In this document: positions 24,193 to 33,176 of the stretch, one piece after another
Numbering within the stretch: the first letter of the stretch is position 1
Layout of the letters: the number at the start of each line of letters is the position of its first letter
DNA from: Acidobacteriota bacterium
Lineage (GTDB): Bacteria > Acidobacteriota > Vicinamibacteria > Vicinamibacterales > UBA2999
Reading direction: 5' to 3'
DNA: 64,000 nt
Assembly: GCA_016184455.1 (NCBI GenBank)
Contig: JACPCS010000127.1
Span: 1 to 64,000, forward strand
Made by a program: the position numbers and the translations under genes
The notes under the pieces: model-generated
Databases searched by the model: none
The model's input: the letters and a program-made list of their open reading frames with translations, nothing else
Told to the model about the DNA's origin: nothing

Positions 24193-24312
24193 GTGAGTCG
24201 CGATCCCCGCAAACTCGATGTGTTTCAGCTGGCCGACGCGCTCGTCGTGCGAGTGTACCATGCGATTCGCGCCGTTCCGGCAGAGGAACGCTACGGAATT
24301 CAGAGACCCTAA
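24193..24312 (+). pseudogene. Four-helix-bundle protein fragment (N-terminal third)
   Basis: GTG at 24193 opens 39 codons reading VSRDPRKLDVFQLADALVV, RVYHAIRAVPAEERYGIQ and then RP stop. The first 37 residues match the start of the 4HB family (compare FRDLKVWQQAMGLVEDVY and DERFGLTAQ in the intact gene at 1319). The conserved LRRAAVSIPSNIGEG block and everything after it are missing. The break falls where the convergent ATPase gene ends, and the two 3' ends overlap by 4 nt. The missing 3' part is not found on the other side of the ATPase gene. Confidence 0.78.
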
Positions 24313-25454
24313 TAGGTTTTCCGCGCGATCCATTCGCGGAAGAGCGAATCGATGACGACGTACTGCTGCCCTTCCTTGAGCAGCAGATCGTGCTTGACGA
24401 GCGCGGCGAGCGAGGCCTGGATGCTCGAGGGTCCGCCCAGCCGGTGCCGCGCGCGCGTGTCGGCCGAGAGGAGCTCGCGGCCGCCCTGCAGCACGACGGC
24501 GCGGAGCACGGCACGCTGAGCGAGCGTGAGACGCTGCCAGACGGCTTCGAACATCGTGTCCTGTTCCGAGAGCAGGCGCGTCAGCGTGGCATGGAGCTGC
24601 TCGAGGCCCGCGCGCCGTCCCCCGGACGACCGCACATCGTCCCAGGTTTCGTGCGCGAGGCGCTGCACGTCGTAGGGCAGATTGCCGGCCAGATCGACGA
24701 TGGCGGCACCGAGACCGGGCTCCGCGCGAATGCCGCTGCGGGCGAATCGGGCCTCGATGAACTCCGCGAACACGGCAGGGGGAATCTTCTCCAGCCGCAT
24801 GACCGGCCCGGCCTTGTAGAAGGGCCGGCGCGGCCCGATCATCTTCTCCATCAGGCTCGGCTCGGAGCCGGCGAACACGTAGCCGACCTGCCGCTGCTGC
24901 TGCGCGGCGGCCCGCAGCGCGTGCTCCACCTCGCCGCCGTCGAAGGCGTCAATCGCCTGGAACTCGTCGAGCGCGACCACGACCGTTCGCTTCCGGTCGG
25001 CGGCGAGCCGTCCCGGGAGCGAGAAGATTTCATTCGCCAGCCTGTTGACCTCGCGCGCGGTACGTACCAGCGGAAACGCGACCGAGAAGCGCCCCGGCCC
25101 GCCCTCTTCCGGCTCGTACCGCAGCTCGGGCCGCGTGGTCGCGATGACGTCGGCCAGCCAGGCCCGCGCCTGCTGCCATGTCGTCTCGACGGTCGCCAGC
25201 GCGCGCGCGTAGCCCTCGAGAAAAGCCAGGTACGAGCTGTAACTGCTGACCGTGAGCTCGAGGGTGAGCGCGCCGTGCCGCGAGAGCGTGTGAAGCGCGC
25301 GGTGAACGAGCGAGGACTTCCCGTACCGGCGCGGCGAAATCAGAAAGACCTTCTGGGCCGACGAGAGGTCGGCGACCAGGCGGTCGAGCTCCGTCTCGCG
25401 GTCGGCAAACGCCTCGTCGGGGACGATCTCGCCGTAGATGAAGGGGTTCTCCAC
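24309..25454 (-). CDS. AAA ATPase, archaeal-type ATPase_2 family
   Basis: A 381-residue P-loop ATPase. The start motif NPFIYGEIVPDEAFADRE is typical of the ATPase_2 (archaeal-type STAND-like) family. Walker A is the family variant SPRRYGKSSL (about residue 40), Walker B is VVVALDEFQAID (about 160), and a sensor region YVFAGSEPSLMEKMI follows. The C-terminus has a winged-helix-like part, TLAQRAVLRAVVLQGGRELL. The function of these standalone ATPases is unknown; they are patchily distributed and often near mobile DNA. The GTG start at 25454 sits beside a palindrome cluster. It lies between a truncated 4HB gene and the his operon. Confidence 0.85.
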   Translation of the reverse strand: MENPFIYGEIVPDEAFADRETELDRLVADLSSAQKVFLISPRRYGKSSLVHRALHTLSRHGALTLELTVSSYSSYLAFLEGYARALATVETTWQQARAWLADVIATTRPELRYEPEEGGPGRFSVAFPLVRTAREVNRLANEIFSLPGRLAADRKRTVVVALDEFQAIDAFDGGEVEHALRAAAQQQRQVGYVFAGSEPSLMEKMIGPRRPFYKAGPVMRLEKIPPAVFAEFIEARFARSGIRAEPGLGAAIVDLAGNLPYDVQRLAHETWDDVRSSGGRRAGLEQLHATLTRLLSEQDTMFEAVWQRLTLAQRAVLRAVVLQGGRELLSADTRARHRLGGPSSIQASLAALVKHDLLLKEGQQYVVIDSLFREWIARKTY

Positions 25455-30462: not shown

Positions 30463-30489
30463 CAATGACCAACCCCCAACCACCAACTA
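30463..30489. repeat. TTGGTGG-type words in the hisG-hisD gap
   Basis: The minus strand reads TAGTTGGTGGTTGGGGGTTG then GTCATTG between the hisG stop (TAG) and the hisD ATG. These are the same heptamers as the array at 10729-10760. The other six his junctions overlap, so this 24-nt spacer looks like an insertion of array words into the operon. Confidence 0.7.
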
Positions 30490-31377
30490 GACCACGATCT
30501 TATTGAGCGGATACTCCACGATCCCCTGTCCGCCGGCGGCCTTCAGCTTCGGAATCAGGTCGCGGACCGTGCGCTCCTCGATGATGGTATTGACCGCCAC
30601 CCACTCGCGATCGCTCAGCGACGAGATCGTCGGCCGCTGCAGCGCGGGCAGGAGCGCCAGCACCCGGTCGAGATCCGCGCAGCGGACGTTGAGCATGAGC
30701 CCGACGCGGCCCTGCGCCTCGATGGCGGCGCGCAGCAGCAGCGCGATGTTCTCGATCTTCGTGCGCTTCCACGGGTCGGCGAGCGCCGCGTCGTTGGCGA
30801 TGAGCTGCGTGTTCGACTCCATCACGGTGTCGAGGATCCGCAGGCGGTTCGCGCGCAGCGTGGATCCGGTCTCGGTCGCCTCGACGATCGCATCGGCGAG
30901 CACGGGCGGCTTGACTTCCGTGGCGCCCCACGAGAACTCCACGTTCACCGGCACCTCGAGCCTGTCGAAGTACGCCTTGGTCACGCGCACCAGCTCGGTC
31001 GCAATCGTCGCGTTGGCGAAGTCGGTCGGCGACTTGAAGCGGGAGTCTTCCGGTGCGGCAAGCACCCAGCGCACCTTGCCGAAGCTCTGTTTCGCGTACA
31101 CCAGATCCGCGACGCTCGTGATGGCGTGCTTCACCTGTCCCCCGAGCTTGTGCTCGGCGATCCAGTCCTGCCCGGTGAGCCCCGCGTCGAGAACGCCGTC
31201 GCAGACATACCGCGCCATCTCCTGCGCGCGAATCAGCATGCACTCGATCTCGGGATCGTCGATGGTCGGGAAATAGGATCGCGAGCTGACGTAGACGTTG
31301 AAGCCCGCGCGCGCGAACAGCTGGATGGTCGCGTCCTGGAGCGACCCCTTCGGAATGCCGAGCTTGAGCGTCGTCAT
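30487..31377 (-). CDS. hisG: ATP phosphoribosyltransferase, long form
   Basis: First committed step: ATP plus PRPP to phosphoribosyl-ATP. At 296 residues it is the long, hexameric form with its own C-terminal ACT-like regulatory domain (about 215-296, including [38 protein letters not shown]), so feedback inhibition by histidine is expected without HisZ. The catalytic part shows [37 protein letters not shown] and the PRPP loop region [16 protein letters not shown]. It starts in a 4-nt overlap with hisI. Confidence 0.95.
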
Positions 31378-31700
31378 GGAATCGTCACGCCCTCCGCGCG
31401 TTGAAAGAAGCAGCTGCGCTCGCCCGTGTGGCAGACGTTGCCGTCGCCGAGCCGCTCGGCTTTGACGAGCACCGTGTCCTCGTCGCAGTCGACGAGGATC
31501 TCGCGGACCGCGAGGCGGTTGCCGGAGGTCTCGCCCTTGGTCCAGAGCGCGTTGCGCGTGCGGCTGAAGAACGTCACGTAGCCGGTGCGCCGCGTGACGT
31601 CCCACGCCTGCTCGTTCATGAAGCCGACCATCAACACCTCACCGCTGACGTGGTCCTGCACGACCGCGGGAATCAGGCCATCGAGCTTTGAGAAGTCCAT
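31374..31700 (-). CDS. hisI: Phosphoribosyl-AMP cyclohydrolase
   Basis: Third step of the pathway, a zinc- and magnesium-dependent ring opening. A 108-residue monofunctional HisI with [50 protein letters not shown] (metal-binding Asp/Cys) and [11 protein letters not shown] (second Cys pair region). The HisE pyrophosphohydrolase domain is absent and must be encoded elsewhere. It is the first structural gene of the operon, 33 nt downstream of an intrinsic terminator and preceded by a histidine-rich leader. Confidence 0.94.
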
Positions 31701-31733
31701 CGTGCTGCGTTCCGGGTTCCGAGTTCGTACAAC

Positions 31734-31763
31734 AAAAAACCCCGCCACATCGTGCCGGCGGGG
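31734..31763 (-). terminator. Intrinsic terminator in the his leader (attenuator)
   Basis: On the minus strand GGGGCGG-type arms at 31740-31746 and 31757-31763 form a 7-bp G:C stem (CCCCGCC with GGCGGGG) with a 10-nt loop, followed by six consecutive T at 31739-31734. It lies between the leader peptide stop and hisI, where read-through must be decided. The competing antiterminator pairing was not worked out. Confidence 0.85.
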
Positions 31764-31802
31764 CTGCCTGCGATCTGCTGTGTCGGCCTTAGCGTCGGTC
31801 CT

Positions 31803-31874
31803 TCAGCGTGCGCAGTCCTCCCGGCCGGCCGGATGGCCGTGGTGATGGTGCGCGTGGTGGAGGAGGTTCGACAT
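31803..31874 (-). CDS. hisL: his operon leader peptide
   Basis: A 23-residue reading frame, MSNLLHHAHHHHGHPAG then REDCAR and TGA. Seven of the nine residues at positions 6-14 are histidine, encoded by five CAC and two CAT codons. It ends 40 nt before the terminator stem and 103 nt before the hisI ATG, the classical layout of ribosome-mediated his attenuation known from enteric bacteria. Stalling at the His run when charged tRNA-His is scarce should favour read-through. The ribosome-binding site is weak (AGGGA about 12 nt upstream). Confidence 0.88.
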   Translation of the reverse strand: MSNLLHHAHHHHGHPAGREDCAR

Positions 31875-31930
31875 CGGCGCCAACGGTCCCTGCAGGCTAC
31901 CAAAAAGCGCAGACCATACGCAAGCCGCGT

Positions 31931-31949: not shown

Positions 31950-33176
31950 ATGCAGCGGCTGCTTCGCGCACTCCTCGTACTGGCGATCGCGGCGAGCGCC
32001 CGTGTGGCCGCGGAGGACTGGCCGCAGTTCCTCGGGCCCGAACGGAATGGCGTCTATCGCGGACCGGCGCTCGCCGAAAGCTGGGGACCACAGGGTCCGC
32101 GCGTCGTCTGGCGCAGGCAGGTGGGTGCGGGCTTCGCCGGCCCGGCCGTCGTGCAGGGCCGCGTCATCCTGTTTCACCGCGTCGGCACCGAAGAAGTGGT
32201 CGAGTCGCTCGACGCGCGCACCGGCAGCACGCAGTGGCGCTACGGGTATCCCACCACGTATCGAGACGACTTCGGCTTCGACGAGGGTCCGCGCGCGGTG
32301 CCCGTCGTCTCCGGCGTCGTCGTCTATACCTTCGGCGCCGAAGGGCAGCTCCATGCGATCGATCTCGCGAAAGGGACGCGGATCTGGAGCGAGGACACGA
32401 TGCGGCGCTTCAAGGTGCCGAAGGGCTTCTTTGGCGCCGCCGGATCGCCGCTCGTCGAGGACGGCCGCGTGCTCGCGAACGTCGGCGGCCCCGAGGCGGG
32501 CATCGTCGCCTTCGACGCGAAGAGCGGCAAGGTGCTGTGGACGGCGACGAGCGATCAGGCGAGCTACTCGTCGCCCGCCGGAGCGACGATTGGCGGACGG
32601 CGTCTCGCGATCTTTCTGACGCGCGCCGGCCTCGTGGGGCTCGATCCAGCGACCGGCCGCGTGCAGTTTCAACGCCCCTGGCGCGCCCGGATCGCGGCGT
32701 CGGTCAACGCCGCCACGCCCATGGTCATTGGCGACCTGATTTTCGTGTCGGCCGAATACGGTCCCGGCGCCGGCGTGTTCCGGCTCGAAGGCACGATGCT
32801 CAGCGAGCTCTGGACGTCGAACGAGGTGCTGACCAATCACTACGCGACGAGCGTGCACCTCAACGGCGTTCTCTACGGGTTCCACGGCCGGCAGGAGTTC
32901 GGACAGAGCTTCCGCGCGGTCGAACTGCGGACCGGAAAAGTGCGCTGGAGCCAGGAGCGATTCCTGGCGGGCACCGTGACGCTCGTCGGCGACCGGCTGC
33001 TGATTCTGCGCGAGCGCGGCGAGCTCGTGCTGGCTCCTGCCTCGCCTGACGGCTTCAAGCCGCTCGCGCGCGCGCAGATTCTGCCGGGAGTGGTCCGTGC
33101 CTATCCGGCCCTCTCGGACGGATTGCTGTTCGCGCGCAACGAGAACACCCTCGTGTGCCTCGATCTGCGGAAATGA
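31950..33176 (+). CDS. Exported PQQ-like beta-propeller protein
   Basis: A 408-residue protein with signal peptide (MQRLLRALLVLAIAASARVA) and mature start EDWPQFLGPERNGVY, the usual opening of outer PQQ_2/BamB-like WD-type propellers. Repeats include VVWRRQVGAGFAGPAVVQGR, LHAIDLAKGTRIWSED, IVAFDAKSGKVLWTATSD and LVGLDPATGRVQFQRP. No quinone-binding Trp-docking pattern of true dehydrogenases is evident, so a scaffold or sorting role is more likely. It heads a four-gene unit of exported proteins joined by 4-nt overlaps. Confidence 0.85.
   Translation: MQRLLRALLVLAIAASARVAAEDWPQFLGPERNGVYRGPALAESWGPQGPRVVWRRQVGAGFAGPAVVQGRVILFHRVGTEEVVESLDARTGSTQWRYGYPTTYRDDFGFDEGPRAVPVVSGVVVYTFGAEGQLHAIDLAKGTRIWSEDTMRRFKVPKGFFGAAGSPLVEDGRVLANVGGPEAGIVAFDAKSGKVLWTATSDQASYSSPAGATIGGRRLAIFLTRAGLVGLDPATGRVQFQRPWRARIAASVNAATPMVIGDLIFVSAEYGPGAGVFRLEGTMLSELWTSNEVLTNHYATSVHLNGVLYGFHGRQEFGQSFRAVELRTGKVRWSQERFLAGTVTLVGDRLLILRERGELVLAPASPDGFKPLARAQILPGVVRAYPALSDGLLFARNENTLVCLDLRK

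What the first reader, a model, noticed from the sequence alone, without database searches (positions are those of the whole stretch)
31734..31874. Histidine attenuator in a probable acidobacterium
A 23-codon frame with seven His codons in a nine-codon run is followed 40 nt later by a GC stem with six Ts, 33 nt before hisI. This is the complete architecture of ribosome-mediated his attenuation, best known from Gammaproteobacteria and some Firmicutes. A leader this short is missed by gene callers.
Basis: partly seen in the sequence, partly recalled or inferred. Interest (0 to 1): 0.72.

Follow-up and report, generated by a model that had tools for sequence, protein, structure and literature searches.

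The report
Histidine attenuator of acidobacterial his operons
A tiny histidine-rich reading frame and a switchable RNA hairpin sit in front of the histidine-making genes of this bacterium and nearly all its relatives, so the cell can probably turn these genes on only when ribosomes run short of histidine; the switch type is known, but I found no description of it for this phylum, and its reading frame starts almost at the tip of the messenger RNA.

Summary
It is the only such frame in the window. Comparative evidence supports ribosome-mediated his attenuation. All 41 family genomes with hisI have a His-rich leader followed by a terminator; across the order (Vicinamibacterales, Acidobacteriota) 106 of 121 loci pass the strict His test, 12 more have a weaker leader behind the same promoter, 2 lack it, 1 is truncated. 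Three mutually exclusive helices (anti-antiterminator, antiterminator, terminator) each show compensatory changes. The leader also occurs in three other acidobacterial families, before hisI, hisG or hisZ. Rfam His_leader does not match. Transcription start, leader translation and histidine response were not testable. Verdict: a genuine his attenuator by anatomy and covariation, not found described for this phylum in the held literature, with a leaderless leader: a new variant of a known kind.

The parts
31918..31923 (-). predicted -35 box TTGCGT
   Evidence: TTGnnn at 17/18 nt from TAnnnT in 108 of 112 order leaders; about 1 expected in shuffles
31894..31899 (-). predicted -10 box TAGCCT (spacer 18); transcription start expected about 31885-31888
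   Evidence: start site itself not mapped
31803..31874 (-). his leader peptide ORF, 23 codons from ATG (26 codons if the in-frame TTG at 31883 is the start)
31833..31859 (-). regulatory His codons: 7 His in 9 codons
   Evidence: His kept with free third codon base in relatives
31849..31856 (-). segment 1 (CACGCGCA inside the His run), pairs with segment 2
31811..31829 (-). segment 2, 3' end of leader ORF (GCCGGC..CTGCG): pairs with segment 3 as antiterminator; its end (31814-31807) pairs with segment 1
31754..31772 (-). segment 3 (CGCAG + 5' arm of terminator): shared by antiterminator and terminator
31734..31765 (-). intrinsic terminator: 10-bp stem and T6
31377..31700 (-). hisI (phosphoribosyl-AMP cyclohydrolase), first gene of the controlled operon
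   Evidence: NCBIfam NF000768 above cut-off; start conserved in relatives
30487..31377 (-). hisG
   Evidence: TIGR00070, TIGR03455
29224..30486 (-). hisD
   Evidence: TIGR00069
25503..29299 (-). hisC, hisB, hisH, hisF, hisA
   Evidence: hisC and hisA best matches but below curated cut-off

Best explanation
A ribosome-mediated transcription attenuator for histidine. RNA polymerase starts just in front of the leader ORF; a ribosome loads at or very near the 5' end and translates the His-rich leader. With enough charged tRNA-His it runs to the stop codon, covers segment 2, segment 3 pairs with segment 4 and transcription stops before hisI. When charged tRNA-His is scarce, it stalls in the His run, masks segment 1, frees segment 2 to pair with segment 3, and polymerase reads into hisIGDCBHFA. 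Without translation, segments 1 and 2 pair and the terminator forms. Shown: anatomy, conservation, mutually exclusive helices with compensatory changes, promoter-like boxes at a fixed place. Inferred: transcription start, translation, stalling and the histidine response.
For: Leader plus terminator in 41/41 family genomes; in the order 106/121 loci with at least 5 His in 9 codons, 101 of those 106 with a terminator before hisI, 12 further weaker leaders. Covariation on A1: 1:2 pair 26-93 CG to UA in 6; 2:3 pairs 91-160 and 92-159 GC/CG to UA in 7 and 9; 3:4 pair 164-187 CG to GC in 17; cells with changes on both sides exceed all 500 shuffles in each helix, and sliding the partners lowers pairing. 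Nucleotides of segment 2 are kept while read in two frames (..GRPAGLRALRD or ..AVRQDCAR). His codons mix CAC/CAT freely except the codon whose third base pairs in helix 1:2 (CAC 34, CAT 1). Masking folds: 5' arm of the terminator is held upstream with mean P 0.81 when the ribosome stalls mid-run and 0.36 at the stop codon, higher when stalled (by over 0.2) in 96 of 101 genomes; antiterminator pairing beats dinucleotide shuffles (mean 0.81 v 0.59). Window: antiterminator -37.8 kcal/mol, terminator alone when segment 2 is covered. One strong copy per genome, at his.
Against: No expression data. In full-length equilibrium folds the terminator usually wins even in the stalled state, so the switch must work while RNA is being made. 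The window's own segment 2 pairs in a register slightly different from most relatives, and its P(5' arm upstream) does not exceed its own shuffles although its energy does (z -3.9). Helix 1:2 pair 23-96 is a mismatch in 28 of 41. The leader fold as a whole is not unusually stable (z -0.55).
Confidence: 0.93

Rival explanations
1. The His-rich leader is translated but its stalling controls hisI by another route (translational coupling or Rho), the stem being a weak secondary element.
For: In 4 of 8 loci of family f12 and one of f10 no terminator was called; Cys-rich leader ORFs of mycobacteria have no conserved terminator (PMC1262725).
Against: 101 of 106 leaders are followed by a stem with a T run at a narrow distance, with covariation in the stem.
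Confidence: 0.05
2. The ORF encodes a functional His-rich (metal-binding) micropeptide; the terminator is incidental.
For: His-rich peptides bind metals (general knowledge).
Against: Residues outside His vary, the C-terminus is read in two frames in related genomes, and RNA pairing is kept; position is tied to his operons.
Confidence: 0.01
3. Chance ORF plus an unrelated terminator of a neighbouring gene.
For: High GC makes stems common; terminator-like calls in 2 kb are not far above shuffles.
Against: The upstream gene is divergent (31950-33176), so no transcript needs ending there; leader and stem are conserved across the order.
Confidence: 0.01

Closest known systems
his attenuator of Enterobacteria (hisL; Rfam RF00514 His_leader)
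   Same: Run of His codons in a short leader, alternative antiterminator and terminator hairpins, T run, in front of the his operon (general knowledge of hisL; PMC9413887).
   Different: Rfam model does not match even at E<=10; operon begins with hisI, not hisG; the leader lacks a Shine-Dalgarno and starts about at the predicted RNA 5' end; compact three-helix layout largely inside the ORF.
Candidate his attenuators of Firmicutes (Bacillus cereus group, Peptostreptococcaceae, Erysipelotrichales; PMC9413887)
   Same: His-codon leader, terminator and antiterminator found by comparative genomics, not by Rfam.
   Different: 3-5 His in a row there; other phylum; no leaderless start reported in the passages read.
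Leaderless attenuators: Sinorhizobium trpL (PMC7298713), Corynebacterium ilvBNC (PMC11857589)
   Same: Leader ORF at the 5' end of the transcript; three-hairpin model for ilvBNC.
   Different: Trp and branched-chain amino acids, other phyla; the 5' end is known there, only predicted here.

Membership tests
Ribosome-mediated (leader-peptide) his attenuator | Short leader ORF with a run of codons for the pathway's product | tested here: met
   7 His in 9 codons; conserved in the order
Ribosome-mediated (leader-peptide) his attenuator | Intrinsic terminator between leader and first structural gene | tested here: met
Ribosome-mediated (leader-peptide) his attenuator | Antiterminator, exclusive with the terminator, using RNA freed when the ribosome stalls | tested here: met
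   covariation and masking folds; prediction, not probed
Ribosome-mediated (leader-peptide) his attenuator | Anti-antiterminator (1:2) helix inside the leader | tested here: met
   84.7% of cells paired, 6 CG-to-UA changes; one position mismatched in most
Ribosome-mediated (leader-peptide) his attenuator | Controls histidine biosynthesis genes (position) | tested here: met
   hisIGDCBHFA downstream
Ribosome-mediated (leader-peptide) his attenuator | Leader is translated; readthrough rises on His-tRNA limitation | not testable with these tools
   needs RNA or reporter data
Rfam RF00514 His_leader | Match to the covariance model | tested here: not met
   no match at gathering score or at E<=10
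His T-box | T-box RNA upstream of the operon | tested here: not met
   no Rfam T-box in the window
Leaderless leader ORF | -10 box too close to the start codon for a Shine-Dalgarno leader | tested here: met
   order: 97/112 with -10 ending 8-12 nt before the start, 106/112 without SD core; in the window itself only if TTG 31883 is the start
Leaderless leader ORF | Mapped RNA 5' end at the start codon | not testable with these tools
   no transcript data

The most novel reading that the evidence does not exclude
Histidine attenuation driven by a leaderless leader ORF is an old, widespread trait of Acidobacteriota, kept while the operon's first gene changed (hisI, hisG or hisZ), and ribosome loading directly on the emerging 5' end replaces the Shine-Dalgarno and pause-hairpin timing of the enterobacterial system.
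Probability: 0.4. Interest if true: 0.65.

Novelty: new variant of a known kind. Interest (0 to 1): 0.52.

Why it matters
[quoted passage not shown] This assigns one, for a whole order and at least three further families of a major soil phylum, with a leader list and a covariance model. It also provides over 100 natural variants of a probably leaderless attenuator, useful for asking how a ribosome keeps pace with polymerase without a Shine-Dalgarno.

Tried and rejected
Rfam at gathering and E<=10: nothing relevant. Whole-leader MFE z-score was uninformative. Second copies of the leader in the family: only weak matches at least 44 bits below the weakest true one, not followed. Other orders of the class: no comparable leader in 18 of 20 regions. 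hisI loci of 30 non-acidobacterial genomes: none. A promoter-anchored short-ORF scan of the window found no other leader (its -35 threshold is stricter than this leader's own TTGCGT box, so it is not a complete search). Literature: no paper on attenuation with Vicinamibacter, Solibacter or Acidobacteriota as a subject was found; subscription papers, such as the Russian comparative surveys of attenuation, are not in the library, so an earlier mention cannot be excluded.

Full report
Observation. The feature lies on the minus strand of G000:C107. The leader ORF 31874-31803 reads MSNLLHHAHHHHGHPAGREDCAR*. The stop codon is 37 nt before a 10-bp GC stem (31765-31738) that ends in six Ts (31739-31734); 33 nt further hisI starts at ATG 31700. 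Short ORFs with at least 5 His in 9 codons are rare: one in both strands of the window, this one, and two in 706 kb of strand sequence from relatives.

Operon. hisI, hisG, hisD, hisC, hisB, hisH, hisF and hisA follow on the same strand (NCBIfam; hisC and hisA are below their curated cut-offs but best matched there). The next gene upstream is divergent (31950-33176, BamB/PQQ-like propeller), so the terminator cannot belong to it. An open frame from GTG 31748 runs through the terminator into hisI; an automatic gene caller could start hisI too early and hide the attenuator.

Taxon. G035, same genus, has the same contig number and length (59843) as MELF01000003.1, Acidobacteria bacterium RIFCSPLOWO2_12_FULL_68_19; other relatives carry the names Vicinamibacteria, Vicinamibacterales and Luteitalea.

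Conservation. In the family 41 of 43 genomes have hisI and all 41 have a His-rich leader followed by a terminator. In the order 121 loci were read (41 + 80): 106 have at least 5 His in 9 codons, 101 of these with a terminator. Of the other 15, 12 have a leader with fewer His behind the same promoter, two (L072, L088) have none, and one contig ends too soon. Outside the order, a hisD-anchored survey found such leaders in family f26 (7 of 7, also hisI-first with promoter and hairpin), f38 (3 of 3, before hisZ or hisG) and f41 (one, before hisZ), and in none of the remaining families sampled within 4 kb; antisense gave none. A genome named Terriglobia (L264) also has one, while 30 hisI loci of other groups have none. 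A covariance model of the family leader gives one strong match in each of the 41 genomes, at his.

RNA switch. Three segments compete for a fourth. Segment 1 (CACGCGCA, encoding H-A-H) is complementary to the end of segment 2 (TGCGCGTG in many relatives); segment 2 is complementary to segment 3 (CGCAG plus the terminator 5' arm); segment 3 pairs with segment 4 as terminator. On alignment A1 each helix has compensatory changes: GCG to GTG in segment 1 (Ala to Val) with G to A in segment 2; GC/CG to UA at two neighbouring pairs of helix 2:3; CG to GC in 17 genomes in the terminator. Cells with changes on both sides exceed all 500 shuffles for all three; these shuffles do not correct for relatedness, but the slid controls keep it and fall below on pairing and covariation. 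Related genomes read the same segment-2 nucleotides in two frames, and the third base of His codons is free except where it pairs: the peptide is under selection for His, the RNA for pairing.

Ribosome logic. When RNA up to a ribosome stalled mid-run is masked, the terminator 5' arm is bound upstream with mean probability 0.81 before the 3' arm is made; with the ribosome at the stop codon it is 0.36; the difference has this sign, by over 0.2, in 96 of 101 genomes and the reverse in none. Part of that difference comes simply from having more RNA free; dinucleotide shuffles of the same stretch give 0.59, so real sequences pair better than composition explains. In the window, RNA from 31831 to 31754 forms the antiterminator (-37.8 kcal/mol, z -2.5); RNA downstream of the stop codon forms only the terminator among strong hairpins. 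At equilibrium the finished terminator usually wins, so timing matters, as in known attenuators.

Promoter and leaderless start. Of 112 leaders with enough upstream sequence, 108 have TTGnnn-17/18-TAnnnT, 51 of them exact TTGACA; in 97 the -10 box ends 8-12 nt before the start codon (0.12 expected in mononucleotide shuffles); 106 have no SD core. With transcription starting about 7 nt after the -10 box (general knowledge of sigma-70 promoters), the 5' UTR is about 0-5 nt. TANNNT about 12 nt before the start is the published mark of leaderless genes, estimated at 13% of genes in the Acidobacteria examined (PMC3160421). In the window the rule points to TTG 31883 as start; ATG 31874 would leave a UTR of about 12 nt. 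Leaderless leader ORFs are known for trpL of Sinorhizobium (PMC7298713) and ilvBNC of Corynebacterium (PMC11857589).

Known or new. The mechanism class is known. his attenuators are described in Proteobacteria and some Firmicutes (PMC9413887); Rfam amino-acid leader motifs are regarded as gammaproteobacterial in origin (PMC3766115) and do not match here. No held paper was found that reports one in Acidobacteriota. I file it with ribosome-mediated his attenuators by anatomy and covariation, not with RF00514, and as a new variant because of the probable leaderless start, the compact three-helix layout and the phylum. Function remains to be shown by experiment.

Noticed in passing
L161, L162, L172, L193: In families f38 and f41 His-rich leaders stand before hisZ or hisG instead of hisI, so the attenuator stays with the operon start although the first gene differs.
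   Followed up: partly
L207:12789-12863 (-), L209:1641-1715 (+): In another order of the class a conserved short ORF MTTPAQ(N/S)PLGPVWRGSVHHHRHHS lies about 2.8 kb upstream of hisG; could be a diverged leader.
   Followed up: no
L072, L088: Two genomes of family f14 have no His leader before hisI although relatives do; possible loss of attenuation.
   Followed up: partly
window 31377-31748 (-): An open frame from GTG 31748 runs through the terminator into hisI and could mislead gene callers into an early hisI start.
   Followed up: no
order-wide leaders: Leader His codons use CAT in 47% of cases against 6 of 40 in this genome's his genes; perhaps chosen for sensitivity to tRNA charging.
   Followed up: partly
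window 24309-25454 (-): 381-aa ATPase-like protein just downstream of hisA with no NCBIfam match.
   Followed up: no
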